The position numbers and the translations under genes are program-made. A DNA stretch of 36,701 nt from Myxacorys californica WJT36-NPBG1. Its GTDB lineage: Bacteria > Cyanobacteriota > Cyanobacteriia > Leptolyngbyales > Leptolyngbyaceae. A model generated the notes under the pieces. It searched no databases. It was not told the origin of the DNA and worked only from the letters and a program-made list of their open reading frames with translations. The first letter of the stretch is position 1. Every line of letters begins with the position of its first letter. Positions 18,826 to 33,883 of this stretch are shown here, in pieces. The DNA is taken from assembly GCA_019359315.1 (NCBI GenBank), contig JAHHHO010000051.1, positions 1 to 36,701 of the forward strand, in the 5' to 3' direction.

Positions 18826-21800
18826 TTAGGGTGACATGTTTAGGGCGAAGGTCCGGATTTGCCAGGGCTGGATTCGGGTGGCAGCGGATTTAGTCGCGGA
18901 TGTAGCGGATGGTGGATCGGGGCGCTCGAGGAGATCGACGGAGTGAGCGATAAGTAGCTTAGCAGAGCCAATCGTAAGGCCAAGGTCGCTTTTGAGCTTG
19001 AGATCGGTAGGTTTGCCGTGACATTCGTAACAGCGGAGAATCCAAACATTAGGATTGTCTTCGGATTGCTTGAGAGCGGTCAGGATTAAGTTTTCGGATT
19101 GCAGATCGAGGAGCGAGGCAACGGGCGGAAGCGTGCCTTCAGGATTAGGATTGAGTCTTACAGCGTGTAATGGTTGACTCAGTTCGCGGCTTTTTCGCAC
19201 CGTTTGTGCCGATCGCCAGTCGCCAGCGTGAGGATAGATCGCGTAGGTGAATTCGTGATGCCCAAGGTCTGCTTCTGGATCGGGAAATTCGGAACCTCGC
19301 AGTAAGGTGAGACGGATTTGATTGGGCTTGCAGTCATAGCCATGTTTACAATCGCTTAGAATGCTAACGCCGTAGTCTTCATCGCTTAAGTCCGCCCAAC
19401 CCAAGGCAGACGCTTCCCATTGGGCTTTTTCTTGCTCGGTTTTTGGAGTTGTGGTTCGCGTAATCGCACCGCAAGCAATCTCATAAGTAGCATGGTCGGC
19501 GTTGACCGTTAGCGGAAATGCGGCTTTCACAACGACATGGCGTTCTTGCCAATTTACAGCCGTAGCGATTTCTAGAGCAGGCGAATTGTATTTAAGACGG
19601 TAGACCTGCTTAAAGATGGAGTGTCCAATTTGTCGGGTGACTCGAATTCGCGATTCAAATAGTTTTCCGTCGGGATGAATGTGACGACTCCACAGATCAT
19701 CGCGATCGATGCTGATGTCTAGAAGTTTTGCAGGAGGTAGAGGATGCTGGGCGTAGTTTGGATCGATATTCCAAGCATCCCAATATTGCCCTTCGTCGCG
19801 AAAGGCTTGGAGTTGGTTTCCAGGATGGCTGAGGACTTCGTGCTGATGTTGCTTGTCAAATATACTCGCCAGATCGCCTGTGTTTGGATCGACGGTGACG
19901 CGCAGAAACTCATTCTCTAAAACGTATTCGGGTTGCTGGACGGTGAGTTTTTTTAGCTCGGCTTCGATCGGGCAAAGCCAAAAGCAGCGATAGCCGATCG
20001 CAGGAATATGCTCGGCTAAAAAGGCGATGGAATGCCCGTCAATCTTTTGATTCGGGGGATAGGCATAATTACTCTGATCGCGAAGCTCTTGCCCATCTAG
20101 GTCGTAGACTCGCCAGTGATGTATGGTTGCGTGCTGTGGCACAGCCATTGCGACCGTTTCGGAGCGCTCCCAACTCAGCAAATTGAACACGACGATCAGT
20201 TGAGCGTCGGGATGAGGGGGTGATGGGAGGCGAATGTGAGTTGCGATCGCATCTTTAGCATCGGAACAGAGGGTTAGACACGATGCCAAAGCGCTCTCCC
20301 ACGCTGCATTGGCATCGATGAAGACTTGGGGAATCGAAGAACCGGGCAAAATGTCGTGAAATTGGTTAAACAAAACCTGCTTCCAAGCGCGTTCTAGGTC
20401 TGCTTTGGGGTAGGGCGCTCCGGTGGCGATCGTAGCCAGAGAGGAGAGCAGTTCCGCTTGATACAGCATGACTTCACAGTCGCGATTGAAGCGTTTTTGA
20501 TCGCCGTGCGTGGTGTAACAGCCGCGATGGAATTCTAAATAAAGCTCGTCGTTCCAAATTGGAATCGGGCTAGATGTTTGATCATTCGTTGTTGAACCTC
20601 TGAGGTTCGCGCTTGAATGTTTGAGGTTCACGCTTGAATGTTGATCATTCGTCGTTGAATCTCCGAGGTTCGTCGTTGAACCTAAAAGCATCGCGCTTGA
20701 ATGTTGATCATTCGTCGTTGAATGTTTGAGGTTCACGCTTGAACCTTCGAGGTTCGTCGTTGAATGTTGATCATTCATCGTTGAACCTAAAAGCATCGCG
20801 CTTGAATGTTGATCATTCATCGCCGAATGTTCGAGGTGGGTTGGTGAATGTTCGAGGTGGGTTGATGAATGTTCGAGGTGGGACACCCCACCTTTTGAGT
20901 TCAGCGATTCAGCACTTCGGCTCTCCAACGATTCCAAATACTTCAACGCGATTGTAAATTTTAACGTCGGGAAAAACGGAGACTTCTCCCATCGTTGCGA
21001 GATCGTTAGCATGTCACGAGTTGGGCCTCCTCCATGATCTCCCACGCCTGGAAGCCAAAGACAATCGGTTGAACCAGTTCGCCTAAACCATTCCCAGGCA
21101 TAGGTAGACAGTGCGATCGGGTCAATGCCCTCACCAATCGGAGAAGACATCAGACTAAACACCGTGCTTCCATCTGGAGCTTGCCACTGAAACACTTCGT
21201 GGGGGTATTTGTTCGTATCGTTCCAGCGGAATTTTTGAGTGACGAAGTAATCCATTCCTCCCTGCTTGAGGAGTTGGGGTAACTGCCAGTTAAATCCAAA
21301 TGTGTCAGGCAACCATGCTACACGGTTAATCTCGCCAAACTTTTCTTGGTAGTAGCGCTGACCATAGAGGATGTGACGCGCGATCGCTTCCCCGCTAATC
21401 AGGTTCATCTCTGGCTCAACCCACAGCCCGCCGATCACTTCCCAGCGTCCGTCTTTTACCCGCTCTTGAATCTGAGCGAACAGTTCAGGACGGTTTTGCT
21501 CAATCCACTGATAGAGAGCAGGCGTTGAATGACAGAATGTGAGGTCTGGAAATTTGGTTTGTAAATTCAAGACTGAATTAAACGTGCGTTCAGCGGCTCT
21601 CCAGGTTTCCTCTACATCCCACAGCCAAGCCATATCCAGATGTGCGTGACCCACCATAAAGACGGTGTGCTGTTTGAGGCGGGGACTGAAGGAGTGGAGG
21701 CGATCGCGCAATTTTTGCAGCGCGCCGTTCAATCTAGAGCGATCGCTCACGTCTAACCAATCAAACTGCCCGATTTGCGCTTCAACGGTTGCCAACTTCT

Positions 21801-22350
21801 CCGGCGCAAACGTTTCTAAATAACTTTGCAGCACTGCTAGTTCATCGGCAACGAAGCCCGGATCAATATCGTCATAGTCCGATTCGTATATTAGTCGCGA
21901 CTTCATCAGTCCGCCGATGTCGTGCCCCGGACTCACGAGCCGAATTCCGACGCGGACGACTTCCCCCGGAACCACCTGCTGACTCAGCACCACGCGACAG
22001 GAGTGATCAAACAAATCGCCTTCCTGAACTTTTTCGCCGTTAACGAAGACTTCGGCAAACTCTGCCCACCACGTCAGCGCTAGTCGCAGCGTTAGCCCAT
22101 CCACTGGATAGCCCTGCACATCTTCTGGCAACCGAAATTCTTGGTAAAACCAGCGCACCTTGCACCCTTTCTCCCAAACGAGATAGCCCTTCTCATTCAG
22201 TTCACCTGTCTCGAATGATTGAGCCGGTAACTCTGTAATGTCACAATCGCGACCGCAGATCTTCCAATCGGTCTGCACGTCTCGTTGAGCCAGTTGACGC
22301 AAATGATTGATGACGCCAGAAATAACAGATTGATTCGCAGAGTCCAGCAT
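18826..22350 (-). CDS. GH38 alpha-mannosidase with an internal heptapeptide-repeat tract
   Basis: GH38 enzymes hydrolyse alpha-mannosides with retention of configuration, using a zinc ion and an Asp nucleophile. The metal and catalytic motifs are present: GHAHLDMAW (about 234-242), GLWVEPEMN, and AWLPDTFGFNWQLPQ with the likely nucleophile Asp near residue 349. The C-terminal beta domains follow (YVLENEFLRVTVDPNTGDLASIFDK). At 1174 residues it is longer than typical bacterial GH38 proteins, partly because about 105 residues (about 490-594) are a tandem heptapeptide tract of the type HSSxNLx/NDQ, encoded by 21-base DNA repeats. It interrupts the region before WNDELYLEFHRGCYTT. No signal peptide is seen. 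The physiological substrate is unknown. It is divergent from a hypothetical gene 29 bases away. Confidence 0.93.
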   Translation of the reverse strand: MLDSANQSVISGVINHLRQLAQRDVQTDWKICGRDCDITELPAQSFETGELNEKGYLVWEKGCKVRWFYQEFRLPEDVQGYPVDGLTLRLALTWWAEFAEVFVNGEKVQEGDLFDHSCRVVLSQQVVPGEVVRVGIRLVSPGHDIGGLMKSRLIYESDYDDIDPGFVADELAVLQSYLETFAPEKLATVEAQIGQFDWLDVSDRSRLNGALQKLRDRLHSFSPRLKQHTVFMVGHAHLDMAWLWDVEETWRAAERTFNSVLNLQTKFPDLTFCHSTPALYQWIEQNRPELFAQIQERVKDGRWEVIGGLWVEPEMNLISGEAIARHILYGQRYYQEKFGEINRVAWLPDTFGFNWQLPQLLKQGGMDYFVTQKFRWNDTNKYPHEVFQWQAPDGSTVFSLMSSPIGEGIDPIALSTYAWEWFRRTGSTDCLWLPGVGDHGGGPTRDMLTISQRWEKSPFFPTLKFTIALKYLESLESRSAESLNSKGGVSHLEHSSTHLEHSPTHLEHSAMNDQHSSAMLLGSTMNDQHSTTNLEGSSVNLKHSTTNDQHSSAMLLGSTTNLGDSTTNDQHSSVNLKHSSANLRGSTTNDQTSSPIPIWNDELYLEFHRGCYTTHGDQKRFNRDCEVMLYQAELLSSLATIATGAPYPKADLERAWKQVLFNQFHDILPGSSIPQVFIDANAAWESALASCLTLCSDAKDAIATHIRLPSPPHPDAQLIVVFNLLSWERSETVAMAVPQHATIHHWRVYDLDGQELRDQSNYAYPPNQKIDGHSIAFLAEHIPAIGYRCFWLCPIEAELKKLTVQQPEYVLENEFLRVTVDPNTGDLASIFDKQHQHEVLSHPGNQLQAFRDEGQYWDAWNIDPNYAQHPLPPAKLLDISIDRDDLWSRHIHPDGKLFESRIRVTRQIGHSIFKQVYRLKYNSPALEIATAVNWQERHVVVKAAFPLTVNADHATYEIACGAITRTTTPKTEQEKAQWEASALGWADLSDEDYGVSILSDCKHGYDCKPNQIRLTLLRGSEFPDPEADLGHHEFTYAIYPHAGDWRSAQTVRKSRELSQPLHAVRLNPNPEGTLPPVASLLDLQSENLILTALKQSEDNPNVWILRCYECHGKPTDLKLKSDLGLTIGSAKLLIAHSVDLLERPDPPSATSATKSAATRIQPWQIRTFALNMSP
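20570..20884 (-). repeat. In-frame 21-bp tandem repeat array inside the mannosidase gene
   Basis: Fifteen consecutive 21-base units fill 20570-20884 in perfect register. Twelve units (20570-20821) are mixtures built from half-units such as TTGAACCT, TTGAATGT, GAGGTTC and GATCATTC. The last three (20822-20884) are near-identical, with GAATGTTCGAGGTGGG. Several units are internally palindromic, for example GAACCTC-T-GAGGTTC and the TGATCA core. Because 21 is a multiple of three, any gain or loss of units keeps the frame. The product is a heptapeptide repeat rich in Ser, Thr, Asn and His. Confidence 0.95.
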
Positions 22351-24605: not shown

Positions 24606-26984
24606 ATGCCCTACCCGGTTCCGCCTCCTGAGCCTCCTGCGATCGTCCGAACCTCTGAGCGTCCCTCTAAGCCAATTGCCTCTCTACCTCACTCATCAGA
24701 CATTGTGCAATTGGCGCAAAGTACAACTTTAGAGGAAAGGCTCGCTCAACCGACACCGCCAGAATCATCTCCCCTGTCGCTTTCCCAATGGAAAAGCGCA
24801 AAAGTACTGCGGAGAGCGGAAGCGTTGAACCCGCCAGTCACACCCCCAACACGCGCCGTTGCGCTTGAACCAGGCGAACAGAGAAGCGCTCAATCTGTGC
24901 CTACTCCGTCTCCTTCTACGCCTTTACCGCCGTCTCAAGTCCCTCAACCGACAACACCCCTACCTCCTGCTTCAACCCCGTCTACGCCTGCGCCGGCAAC
25001 CCCCAGCCCAGTCACGCCTACGCCTGCTCCTGCACCGATAACCCCAAGTCCGGTCACGCCTACGCCTGCTCCTACACCAAGTCCGTCTCCAACTACACCT
25101 GCACCCAACGTCCCAACGCAGCAACTCAACAACCAGGGATATTTGGAGCTAAGAGCCGATCGACAAGACTACGACGAACGCCGCCAAATCTTTACCGCCG
25201 AAGGAAAGGTTTCGCTCAGATTTCGAGGCGCGCTACTGACTGCCGATCGGCTGCAAGCCAATCTTGTCAACCGGCTTACCGTTGCCGAGGGAAACGTCAT
25301 CTTGACGCGCGGCGACCAAGTGCTGCGAGGTCAACGCTTCCGCTACAACTTAATTCAAGAAGAAGGCACGGTCGAGCAAGCTAGTGGTGAGATCTATTTA
25401 CCTTCGACCCAGACGGACTTTAACCCCAACCTGCCCACTGACATTACAGCAGGCTCTATTCCGCCGGGGTCAGTCGGCGATCGCTTGACGGTCAATCAAC
25501 CTCCTCAGGGAGTTAGCCGCCAAGGATCGGTCGGCATTGCGCTAGGGTCAAGAAGGCGTACCTCAGGAGGCGTCGCGGCCATTCCTGAAAGCAACGGAAC
25601 CGTCAGTCGGCTACGGTTTGAAGCCGAGCAAATTGAGTTTTACCCAGAAGGATGGCAAGCGCGAAATGTTCGCATTACTAACGATCCCTTCTCGCCGCCC
25701 GAACTTGAGCTTCGCACCGATCTGGCAACACTAACCCGGCTTTCTCCTCTGCGGGATGAACTGCGAGCCTCACGCGCCCGCCTTGTGTTCGATCAACGCT
25801 TCTCCCTACCTCTGCTGCGAAATCGAGTTATCTTAGATCGCAATCAGCGTCAAGCCACCGGAATTAACCTTGGAATAGATGGCGACGATCGCGGTGGCGT
25901 ATTTGTTGAGCGCAGTGTCGAGGTGTTTCCGCCCGGCCCAATTCAATTTACGGTTACGCCTCAGTTTTTTGTGCAACGCGCCATTCAAGGTGGCAATGGA
26001 CTTGCCGATTTGTTTGGCTTGAGAACGCGGTTGACAGCTCCGCTCTCACCACGGACGGCAATTCGAGGCGATGTGGTCTTAACCAGCTTTGACTTTGGCA
26101 AAATTGAAGATAATCTACGGGGCAGTCTGCGGGCACAGCAACTGATTGGAACCCATACGCTCAGTTTAGAAGCGAGTTATCGCAATCGCTTATTCAACAA
26201 TTCGCTCGGGTTTCAAGATGTTCAAAGCAGCGTCGGCGCGTTGTTCTACTCCCCGACGATCGCCCTTGGCAACACAGGCATTAATGCGAGTTACCAAGTC
26301 GGCTATCAGTTTGTCAATGCAGACACCGATCGACCGGAGTTGCTCTCTGCAGACCGTCGTAACAATCGAGTCAGTCTGAGCCGGTTTCAAGCTAGTGCCG
26401 CGCTCAGTCGAGGCTTTCTACTGTGGCAAGGAAAAGGTTTACCCGCTACCGCAACCGAGGGATTGCGCTACTCACCTGTACCCATTGTGCCTTACCTCGC
26501 TTTGGGAACGGGCGTTACAGGCGTGACCTCTGCATATAGCAATGGTGATGTGCAAAATAGCGTGAATGCGACTGTTAGTTTGCTCGGTCAATTTGGCCAT
26601 TTCTCTCGAAACTTTTTAGACTACACTGCATTCAACATCTCTTACACACAAGCCTTCCGCGATGGGTCATCGCCCTTCTTATTTGATCGCATTGCCGACG
26701 ATCGCATTCTTTCTGCCGGAATTACTCAACAACTCTACGGTCCGCTTCGGATTGGATTTCAGACCAGTTACAACGTTCAAACTGGGCGAGAAATTAGCAC
26801 CGACTACATCTTGGAATACAGTCGCCGCACTTACAGTGTTGCTTTGCGCTATAACCCAGTTTTGCAACTCGGTTCGGTCAATTTGCAAATCAGCGACTTT
26901 AACTGGACAGGTGGCGGCACTGAGCCGTTTCAAGGAAGCGGCGTGAGACCTGTGCAGGGAGGTGTGCAACAATTACCAGAATAA
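24606..26984 (+). CDS. LptD/OstA-like outer-membrane protein (DUF3769-type)
   Basis: This is probably a beta-barrel protein for lipopolysaccharide export or assembly in the outer membrane. A Pro/Thr-rich linker (about 75-175) carries duplicated SPVTPTPAPAP segments. An OstA/LptA-like beta domain follows (ELRADRQDYDERRQIFTAEG, AEGNVILTRGDQVLRGQRFR). The C-terminal two thirds has alternating beta-barrel patterns (FQTSYNVQTGREIS, YSVALRYNPVLQLGSVNLQI) and ends FQGSGVRPVQGGVQQLPE. I recognise this as the cyanobacterial DUF3769 arrangement. No classical signal peptide follows the ATG, and no ribosome-binding site precedes it because heptamer repeats reach the start codon. A start further upstream is not available in frame. 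Confidence 0.8.
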   Translation: MPYPVPPPEPPAIVRTSERPSKPIASLPHSSDIVQLAQSTTLEERLAQPTPPESSPLSLSQWKSAKVLRRAEALNPPVTPPTRAVALEPGEQRSAQSVPTPSPSTPLPPSQVPQPTTPLPPASTPSTPAPATPSPVTPTPAPAPITPSPVTPTPAPTPSPSPTTPAPNVPTQQLNNQGYLELRADRQDYDERRQIFTAEGKVSLRFRGALLTADRLQANLVNRLTVAEGNVILTRGDQVLRGQRFRYNLIQEEGTVEQASGEIYLPSTQTDFNPNLPTDITAGSIPPGSVGDRLTVNQPPQGVSRQGSVGIALGSRRRTSGGVAAIPESNGTVSRLRFEAEQIEFYPEGWQARNVRITNDPFSPPELELRTDLATLTRLSPLRDELRASRARLVFDQRFSLPLLRNRVILDRNQRQATGINLGIDGDDRGGVFVERSVEVFPPGPIQFTVTPQFFVQRAIQGGNGLADLFGLRTRLTAPLSPRTAIRGDVVLTSFDFGKIEDNLRGSLRAQQLIGTHTLSLEASYRNRLFNNSLGFQDVQSSVGALFYSPTIALGNTGINASYQVGYQFVNADTDRPELLSADRRNNRVSLSRFQASAALSRGFLLWQGKGLPATATEGLRYSPVPIVPYLALGTGVTGVTSAYSNGDVQNSVNATVSLLGQFGHFSRNFLDYTAFNISYTQAFRDGSSPFLFDRIADDRILSAGITQQLYGPLRIGFQTSYNVQTGREISTDYILEYSRRTYSVALRYNPVLQLGSVNLQISDFNWTGGGTEPFQGSGVRPVQGGVQQLPE

Positions 26985-32860: not shown

Positions 32861-33883
32861 TCACTGTCTCCACCGTCGCGTAAATTCCTCAAGGGTTGCT
32901 TTCGGAATTTGACCTTGTAACCAATTGAGGGCTTGATCTTGGCTGGGTAACGATTGATAGTACTTGCAAACATTAACTAATGTCAGCGGCGACAGCGCAG
33001 GAACTGGAGCAGGAGTCGGCGTTGGAGTCGGGGTCGGTGTTGGAGTCGGGGTCGGTGTTGGAGTCGGCGTTGCGCCCTCTAGCGCTGCCCATGTTGTTGC
33101 CCCAACAATGCCATCTGCCACTAAATTTCTAGACTTTTGAAAGGCAATTATAGCGGCTTTGGTCTTAGACCCAAAATCACCATCTGGCGTCCCGACATCA
33201 AACCCTTTGCCCTTGAGCAACTGCTGCAGCTCTTTCACGACATTTCCGACATAGGTTTGACGTAGCGGAATCCGACCCTTGAGCAAAGCTTGCAAGTTGT
33301 CTAGAGTGCCAGCAAACTGGTTCAGGTCAACGTTGCCCACAATGCCGCGGAGAACACCCGTTTCAGAATACTGGTGAAACGTCCAGGTTTTCCAGGTTCT
33401 GGGCACAAAAGGTGTCCGGGTTCCAAAATTTGCGATCCATAGAGGATATTCTGCAAAGCTAGCAGGACTGCCAAGCTTATCTTCCCAAAAGCTGGGAAAC
33501 GTGTAGAGCAAAGGTTTGCGTCCCGTTTTGTCCTCGATAATAGACAGCCATTTGAGGGCGCGATCGATGATAGTTCTCGTATCTAAACCGTCCGTAATTT
33601 CTAAGTCCAACACGGGTGGTAAGTCAAACGGCTCGATTTTGCCAACAGTTTGCATAAAGTTGGCCGCTTGCGCAGCAGGATCGCGTCCGGGGCGGAAAAA
33701 ATGGTACGCGCCTCGAACGATGCCCACAGAGCGAATGCCCTTCCAGTTTCGGACAAATAAGGGATCGTTACTCGTTGCCCCTTCGGTTGCTTTAGCAAAG
33801 GCATAATAAATTCCTTGACTGGCAACGGTTGCCCAGTCTACGTTTTCTTGGTAAGCCGAGACATCAATTCCAGTTAAAGCCAT
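32861..33883 (-). CDS. GH25 lysozyme-like protein with peptidoglycan-binding domain
   Basis: The 340-residue protein has a GH25 muramidase domain (about 1-195: LTGIDVSAYQ with the N-terminal catalytic-site Asp, AYHFFRPG, PPVLDLEITDG with the acidic DxE pair, and a WIANFG strand). A PG_binding_1 domain follows (about 205-268: VKELQQLLKGKGFDVGTPDG, IVGATTWAAL). A Thr-Pro repeat linker (about 272-293) leads to a 40-residue C-terminal module (VNVCKYYQSLPSQDQALNWL through FTRRWRQ) that I cannot name. No signal peptide is present, as in phage endolysins, so export or release is unclear. GGAGGT 8 bases before the ATG is an ideal ribosome-binding site. The SGNH hydrolase gene lies upstream on the same strand. 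Confidence 0.9.
   Translation of the reverse strand: MALTGIDVSAYQENVDWATVASQGIYYAFAKATEGATSNDPLFVRNWKGIRSVGIVRGAYHFFRPGRDPAAQAANFMQTVGKIEPFDLPPVLDLEITDGLDTRTIIDRALKWLSIIEDKTGRKPLLYTFPSFWEDKLGSPASFAEYPLWIANFGTRTPFVPRTWKTWTFHQYSETGVLRGIVGNVDLNQFAGTLDNLQALLKGRIPLRQTYVGNVVKELQQLLKGKGFDVGTPDGDFGSKTKAAIIAFQKSRNLVADGIVGATTWAALEGATPTPTPTPTPTPTPTPTPTPAPVPALSPLTLVNVCKYYQSLPSQDQALNWLQGQIPKATLEEFTRRWRQ
33021..33074 (-). repeat. 18-bp tandem repeat encoding the Thr-Pro linker
   Basis: GTTGGAGTCGGGGTCGGT occurs at 33021-33038 and 33039-33056, with a diverged third copy at 33057-33074. On the gene strand it encodes alternating Thr and Pro. Copy-number change would keep the frame and only alter linker length. 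Confidence 0.9.

What the first reader, a model, noticed from the sequence alone, without database searches (positions are those of the whole stretch)
20570..20884. A 21-base (3 x 7) repeat array expanded inside a GH38 mannosidase reading frame
Fifteen units in exact register insert about 105 residues of heptapeptide repeat between the catalytic barrel and the following region of an otherwise normal enzyme. The unit length keeps the frame, so the array can grow or shrink without breaking the gene. The product is Ser/Thr/Asn/His-rich, hydrophilic and likely a disordered loop. Possible roles are a tuneable linker, a glycan or surface interaction loop, or a tolerated selfish minisatellite.
Basis: partly seen in the sequence, partly recalled or inferred. 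Interest (0 to 1): 0.75.

Follow-up and report, generated by a model that had tools for sequence, protein, structure and literature searches.

The report
Intergenic repeat lodged in enzyme loop
A sugar-cutting enzyme of a filamentous cyanobacterium carries about 105 extra, probably floppy residues that are the translation of a 21-base DNA repeat also scattered outside genes in that genome, and related species have the same or other repeats in the same loop, sometimes in another reading frame.

Summary
The array is real: about 15 units of 21 bases, in one register, lie in frame between the catalytic and middle domains of an otherwise intact GH38 alpha-mannosidase. It is not specific to the enzyme: the genome holds eight more arrays of this repeat, none inside a gene on both sides. 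In 90 distinct cyanobacterial GH38 sequences this linker is the most length-variable site (median 16 aa, 26 of 90 at 30 aa or more) and holds unrelated repeats in different lineages. In 7 of 9 genomes searched with their own linker, its main repeat recurs elsewhere. The 21-base family sits in this loop in two groups separated on a quick tree by short-linker relatives, and is read in one frame in the window's genus (LKHSTTN-like) and in another in the Stenomitos group (EPQTFND-like). Codon positions show no clear third-base excess. So what recurs is DNA, not a peptide. Best reading: an intergenic minisatellite tolerated in a disordered inter-domain loop, filtered mainly for absence of stops. 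The 21-base unit is no adaptation to coding; intergenic arrays have it too. How the repeat reaches the loop, and any effect on the enzyme, are not shown. New variant of a known kind; moderate interest.

The parts
18826..22350 (-). GH38 alpha-mannosidase ORF, 1174 aa
20920..21666 (-). Glyco_hydro_38N catalytic domain (residues 229-477)
   Evidence: PF01074, E 2.6e-85
20581..20895 (-). array of 15 units of 21 bases (7 codons each), the first partial; family consensus GAA[CG]CTCA[AG]ACATTCA[AC][CG][GC]NY read as x|AAC|CTC|AAA|CAT|TCA|ACG|AC
20575..20889 (-). predicted disordered loop (residues 488-592)
   Evidence: pLDDT under 50
20778..20818 (-). one copy of an exact 41-base internal duplication; the other copy is at 20673-20713 (105-base spacing)
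20257..20535 (-). Alpha-mann_mid domain (residues 606-698)
   Evidence: PF09261
19273..19920 (-). Glyco_hydro_38C domain (residues 811-1026)
   Evidence: PF07748
18847..19092 (-). Glyco_hydro38C2 beta-sandwich domain (residues 1087-1168)
   Evidence: PF17677

Best explanation
The tract is a coding-resident copy of a dispersed, mainly intergenic 21-base minisatellite (three diverged heptamers per unit). It sits in a disordered inter-domain loop of GH38 that tolerates length and sequence, so a repeat present in a lineage can enter and grow there if its length is a multiple of three and the frame stays free of stops. Shown: the family is elsewhere in the window's genome; the loop is the variable hot spot; the same family occurs there in two reading frames in two groups; no clear codon-position signature. 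Inferred: entry by ectopic recombination or copying, growth by unequal crossing-over or slippage of whole 21-base units, and near-neutrality for the enzyme.
For: Own genome: 38 matches at E<=10. I registered eight other arrays (C10, C122, C116, C95, C90, C117, C13, C53); none lies inside a gene on both sides. They have the same unit and register. GH38: linker length sd 39.8 aa against 16.5 for the next most variable site in 100 rows; 26 of 90 distinct rows have 30 aa or more, median 16. Periods differ by lineage: 21, 7, 9/18, 69, 105 bases and others. Searched with their own linker, 7 of 9 genomes show its main repeat elsewhere (match counts include the linker itself): the window (38 at E<=10), G032 (6), one Symploca (63), Shackletoniella (16), Moorena bouillonii (117, mostly the first 70 of 186 bases), Nostoc linckia (95, mostly the first 62 of 105 bases), Nostoc flagelliforme (40). 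Frames: the unit starts at codon position 3 in the window and the congener, and at codon position 1 in L047-L051, L054 and G005, the best of 42 phase/strand choices in each. Our array has 0 stops in its own frame but 4 in the other group's frame. Tree without the linker: the 21-base label needs 3 changes, and starred branches force 3; the window and M. almedinensis sit with 16 rows lacking this repeat in an 18-row starred clade. Codon-position 1/2/3 diversity is .424/.366/.334 in the window and .348/.332/.371 in the other group; the window's synonymous fraction .165 lies within the intergenic range .088-.258.
Against: Of the four 21-base carriers searched with their own linker, two show no further copies of the array: G001 (only 18-21 base matches; also 0 matches to the window's family at 1e-6) and G005 (50 matches, one of them the linker itself, the other 49 all on the heptamer-like ends of its linker and none on the 21-base part; 40 of 76 candidates scored). 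There the array is inherited, local or has lost its source. Unit positions 13-16, which include the Ser codon TCA at 14-16, vary less in the window's GH38 array (0, 0, 0.14) than in intergenic arrays (.15.16.07.40), a hint of some peptide constraint from 14 units. Single arrays of the other group do show somewhat more third-base change (G005 .308/.374/.424). DNA matches between short degenerate repeats at 65-80% identity are weaker homology evidence than ordinary gene matches.
Confidence: 0.76

Rival explanations
1. The loop is selected for being long, hydrophilic and disordered (an entropic spacer, solubility or anchoring segment), and repeats are merely the easiest way to supply it; sequence is free but length and composition are not.
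For: Many tracts are rich in S, T, N, P, E; the region is predicted disordered in the window; several lineages have long linkers.
Against: Close relatives with intact domains have no tract (38-39 residues between GDHGGGP and WNDELYL in L062-L065 and L070, against 155 here), and 51 of 90 linkers are under 20 aa.
Confidence: 0.12
2. The heptapeptide is a specific functional motif (glycan-, metal- or partner-binding; HS/GS repeats).
For: The Ser codon of each unit is nearly invariant in the window's array; the same frame is kept in the congener.
Against: Other genera read the same DNA family in a different frame, giving unrelated peptides; congener units read SIHPKDS; no clear third-position excess; variability along the unit follows that of the intergenic arrays (Spearman 0.59, p 0.005).
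Confidence: 0.05
3. The array arose locally by slippage inside the gene, or seeded the intergenic arrays, and resembles them because all are heptamer-rich.
For: Heptamer sub-period; G001 and G005 show no further copies of their arrays.
Against: Phase-specific match of the window array to the family consensus, 0.72 against 0.51 for the next of 42 choices; an intergenic array of this genome finds the GH38 linkers of G005 (E 8.7e-18) and G003 (E 2.6e-7) in whole-genome searches.
Confidence: 0.18

Closest known systems
Heptameric simple repeats of cyanobacteria (Calothrix, Nostoc; PMC4692102, passages read; the name STRR is recalled)
   Same: 7-base periodicity, dispersed, over-represented between genes, variable unit number, cyanobacterial
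   Different: Here the stable unit is a diverged 21-mer of three unlike heptamers with a fixed register, and one array lies in frame inside an enzyme
TAACTGA heptamer repeats of Beggiatoaceae and some Cyanobacteria (PMC4679880, passages read)
   Same: Heptamers, mostly intergenic; [quoted passage not shown]
   Different: Different sequence; sets of two to six copies; no GH38 case in the passages read
Amino-acid tandem repeats of archaeal Borg elements (PMC9879509, passages read)
   Same: In-frame tandem repeats that make disordered regions, with unit length divisible by three
   Different: Borg repeats are nearly perfect, each region has an essentially unique unit, and only 14-38% of intergenic units are divisible by three; here one diverged 21-base family is shared by intergenic and coding sites
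PARCEL palindromic amphipathic repeat coding elements (PMC2996958, abstract and outline read)
   Same: Repeats with DNA dyad symmetry, dispersed and in coding sequence
   Different: PARCELs conserve a 25-residue amphipathic peptide; here the peptide is not conserved and pairing in the 15-base quasi-palindrome hardly covaries
Rickettsia palindromic elements inside genes (recalled; papers seen only in a search listing)
   Same: A dispersed element inserted in frame in protein genes and usable in more than one frame (recalled)
   Different: Single palindromic insertions, not tandem arrays (recalled); no sequence relation tested

Membership tests
GH38 alpha-mannosidase | GH38N, middle, GH38C and C2 domains in order | tested here: met
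   all above Pfam cut-offs; best fold matches are Ams1 (7vqo, 6lz1) and bacterial GH38 structures
GH38 alpha-mannosidase | catalytic and metal residues kept (GHAHLD, LPDTFGF, GDHGGGP; roles recalled) | tested here: met
   H235, H237, D239, D349, D438 invariant and H439 nearly invariant in 37 aligned sequences, window included
GH38 alpha-mannosidase | mannosidase activity | not testable with these tools
   needs expression
Cyanobacterial heptamer repeats (STRR) | 7-base periodicity | tested here: met
   lags 7, 14, 28, 35 give 0.32-0.47 in the nine arrays against means of 0.21-0.25 at lags not divisible by 7; single other lags reach 0.31-0.38, so the signal is weak in L031 and slight in L036-L038
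Cyanobacterial heptamer repeats (STRR) | near-identical heptamers head to tail | tested here: not met
   lag 21 is far above lag 7; the three heptamers of a unit differ
Intragenic minisatellite of a dispersed family | same repeat elsewhere in the genome | tested here: met
   met for the window and G032; not met in the congener G001 or for the 21-base part in G005
Intragenic minisatellite of a dispersed family | unit number varies between close strains | tested here: inconclusive
   about 15 against 7-9 units in one congener, with different units; no strains of the same species were at hand
PARCEL | conserved amphipathic 25-residue repeat peptide | tested here: not met
   7-residue units, read in two frames in different genera
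Hairpin-forming palindromic repeat (REP-like) | compensatory pairing within the palindrome | tested here: inconclusive
   pairing lies within about 2 sd of shuffled partners at six of seven pairs; the innermost is higher.59 against .48, sd .036

The most novel reading that the evidence does not exclude
The 21-base arrays are a functional DNA element whose spacing is maintained: as registered, the eight arrays outside GH38 keep an unbroken register although 693 of 2394 bases differ from the consensus over all nine arrays, 21 bases being about two helical turns. They spread by an active mechanism, and the GH38 loop is a preferred coding landing site that has been entered in two reading frames, so the loop acts as a record of which intergenic repeat is mobile in each cyanobacterial lineage.
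Probability: 0.12. Interest if true: 0.65.

Novelty: new variant of a known kind. Interest (0 to 1): 0.45.

Why it matters
It gives a clean natural experiment on how selfish or neutral DNA becomes protein: one loop in one conserved enzyme, many lineages, different repeats, and one repeat family translated in two frames. The loop could be used to ask how much of bacterial protein disorder is translated intergenic repeat, and gives a ready place to look for live movement of cyanobacterial minisatellites.

Tried and rejected
Peptide selection: looked for third-codon-position excess and synonymous excess in both groups and found none clear. Hairpin or RNA element: the unit contains a 15-base quasi-palindrome, but pairing hardly covaries, and Rfam gave no match up to E 0.1 to the one intergenic array tested. 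Hidden translation of intergenic arrays: the frame used in GH38 has 14 stops in 100 intergenic units, near the column-shuffled mean of 16. Frame +0 had fewer stops than the shuffles (18 against 23), -1 marginally fewer, and +2, -0 and -2 more; I could not interpret this. Assembly artefact: judged unlikely because the longest exact repeat is 41 bases (inference, no reads seen).

Other coding copies: the 74 loci returned (30, 24 and 20; many overlap the same array) were tested for at least 100 codons on both sides in one open frame. 11 passed and 16 were open on one side only. Eight of the 11 are GH38, in six genomes (the window's counted three times). The other three are L023 (a 21-base match in a large ORF, chance-like), L207 (a 267-codon ORF, largely repeat) and L205 (a coordinate error at a contig end; the array lies after an ORF I recognise from memory as argininosuccinate synthase). 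Four of the eight other arrays of the window's genome overlap an ORF of 90 aa or more: L032 the 5' part of a 311-aa ORF; L031, L033 and L034 ORFs of 107-117 aa.

Rows dropped or not seen: GH38 loci are the best 80 of 467 relatives plus loci fetched from a search in which 54 of 58 genomes matched (30 loci, the window's own among them), so near relatives are over-represented. Of 109 loci analysed, 7 were dropped as one-sided or frame-shifted; with the window added and 3 duplicates removed, 100 rows remain, and collapsing identical sequences gives 90. The tree used 96 rows, several of them pairs from one genome, a quick search and a simple model, and warned of long branches. Short matches in C22, C118, C73, C53:4938, C76, C6 and C26 (at most 49 bases, E 0.019 or worse) were not counted as arrays. 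In several genomes only part of the first-look candidates were scored (for example 40 of 87 in G032), so 'only GH38' is not exhaustive. Some genomes were searched only with a relative's linker: G003, G019 and G028 with that of G032 (7, 6 and 1 matches), a second Symploca (59) and a second Moorena (123).

Papers: nine full-text searches (listings capped, one with no hits) listed no paper that I recognised from title or start of abstract as describing this 21-base family or the GH38 loop; this is no proof of absence.

Full report
What is there. The finding lies in a 1174-residue ORF on the minus strand (18826-22350) with all four GH38 domains, conserved GH38 residues and a predicted fold that matches the yeast-type enzyme Ams1 and bacterial GH38 structures. 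Between the end of GH38N (residue 477) and the start of the middle domain (residue 606) lies an array of 21-base units in exact codon register. The periodicity is far above shuffled controls. Other multiples of 7 are also raised, so each unit looks like three diverged heptamers. The translated loop is hydrophilic and predicted disordered.

It is a dispersed DNA family. A search of the window's own genome with the array gave 38 matches at E<=10. I registered eight further arrays of 10-16 units with the same unit and register. None lies inside a gene on both sides. One (L032) overlaps the 5' part of a 311-aa ORF, three overlap ORFs of 107-117 aa and four overlap no ORF of 90 aa or more. Over all nine arrays the consensus is GAA[CG]CTCA[AG]ACATTCA[AC][CG][GC]NY, with position 10 an A in 115 of 115 units. 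The 21-base unit therefore is not a product of the coding position.

The loop is a hot spot. The GH38 set holds the best 80 of 467 relatives and 30 loci, the window's own among them, from a search of 58 genomes. Among 100 usable rows this linker is by far the most length-variable site: sd 39.8 aa, next 16.5. Among 90 distinct rows the median is 16 aa, 26 have 30 aa or more and 15 have 60 or more. Different lineages hold different repeats: PIPNSQF heptamers and a DKG tract in two Symploca, KVSRL in Moorena, PAS in Nostoc, a 69-base unit in Shackletoniella, a 105-base unit in a Microcoleus.

Are the linker repeats genome residents? Nine genomes were searched with their own linker. In seven the main repeat recurs: the window, G032, one Symploca, Shackletoniella, Moorena bouillonii, Nostoc linckia and Nostoc flagelliforme. 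In two it does not. In the congener G001, whose linker is identical to that of Myxacorys almedinensis, only 18-21 base matches were found. In G005 the 49 matches other than the linker itself all fall on the heptamer-like ends of the linker and none on the 21-base part.

Same family, two frames. The GH38 linkers of L047-L051, L054 and G005 carry the same 21-base family, but the unit begins at codon position 1 (EPQTFND-like), whereas in the window and the congener it begins at codon position 3 (LKHSTTN-like). The match is weaker in L051 (0.44 against 0.37 for the next choice). The other group's frame would meet 4 stops in the window's own array. On a quick tree built without the linker, the window and M. 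almedinensis form a fully supported pair, sister to seven rows with short linkers, within an 18-row starred clade where no other row has this repeat. The other seven carriers are in a nine-row starred clade with two rows (apparently one genome) that lack it. Three changes are needed, and starred branches force three. Gain and loss cannot be told apart by the count, but the frame difference favours separate entry.

Selection. If the peptide mattered, third codon positions should be freer. They are not clearly so.424/.366/.334 at positions 1/2/3 in the window array and .352/.330/.318 in intergenic arrays in the same register.348/.332/.371 in the other group against .274/.262/.290 in intergenic arrays, though single arrays such as that of G005 (.308/.374/.424) lean that way. 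The synonymous fraction is .165 in the window array against .088-.258 in intergenic arrays, and .104-.212 in the other group against 0-.38. Against this, the Ser codon of each unit is nearly invariant in the window array, more so than in intergenic arrays; with 14 units this is only a hint.

Where coding arrays are. Of 74 loci from three searches, 11 had 100 open codons on both sides: eight are GH38, in six genomes; the other three are a short chance-like match, a repeat-made ORF and a coordinate error. Candidate lists were not fully scored in all genomes, so this is suggestive, not exhaustive. In whole-genome searches with one intergenic array of the window's genome, 5 of 58 genomes (the window's own included) had matches at 1e-6; the single match of G005 and one of four in G003 fell inside their GH38 genes. 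6 of 42 genomes of the order had matches at 1e-8.

Conclusion. The tract is best seen as intergenic minisatellite DNA tolerated in, and translated with, a disordered inter-domain loop. Presence of the family elsewhere, lineage-specific content, two frames and the lack of a clear codon signature are shown by calls. Entry by recombination, growth by whole-unit exchange and neutrality for the enzyme are inferred. That the window's organism is a Myxacorys rests on the congener's linker being identical to that of M. almedinensis (inference). Known relatives in kind are cyanobacterial heptamer repeats (PMC4692102; PMC4679880), Borg in-frame repeats (PMC9879509) and PARCELs (PMC2996958); it differs from each as listed.

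Noticed in passing
L031-L038 (own genome): The eight arrays outside GH38 keep an unbroken 21-base register as registered, although units are only about 58-75% alike within an array; few or no indels is unexpected for neutral DNA, but array ends were chosen by hand.
   Followed up: partly
L129:2314-2721 (G005 GH38 linker): The 21-base array is bordered on both sides by heptamer-like stretches in opposite orientation (GTGGGGT-like and ACCCCAC-like) that recur at many places in that genome: a possible trace of how the array arrived.
   Followed up: no
L117 (linker about 797 bases) and L105: Two GH38 loci are frame-shifted across this linker; in L117 a long repeat-filled linker carries stops: a possible out-of-frame expansion or an assembly error.
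   Followed up: no
GH38 site at window residues 799-807; L061, L053, L052, L079: A second GH38 linker, before the C-terminal domain, holds heptamer-type repeats (RFPIPDS, QFPIPNS) in Moorena and Symploca.
   Followed up: no
window 24987-25078: 2.2 copies of a 42-base repeat in the N-terminal part of a DUF3769 ORF (24606-26984), before the matched domain.
   Followed up: no
window 33012-33072: 12/18-base repeat inside a GH25 plus peptidoglycan-binding ORF (32861-33883, minus strand), after the matched domains.
   Followed up: no
L180, L181 (G011): Another genome of the same family has two arrays of a related 21-base unit outside long ORFs, while its GH38 linker is short with no such array.
   Followed up: partly
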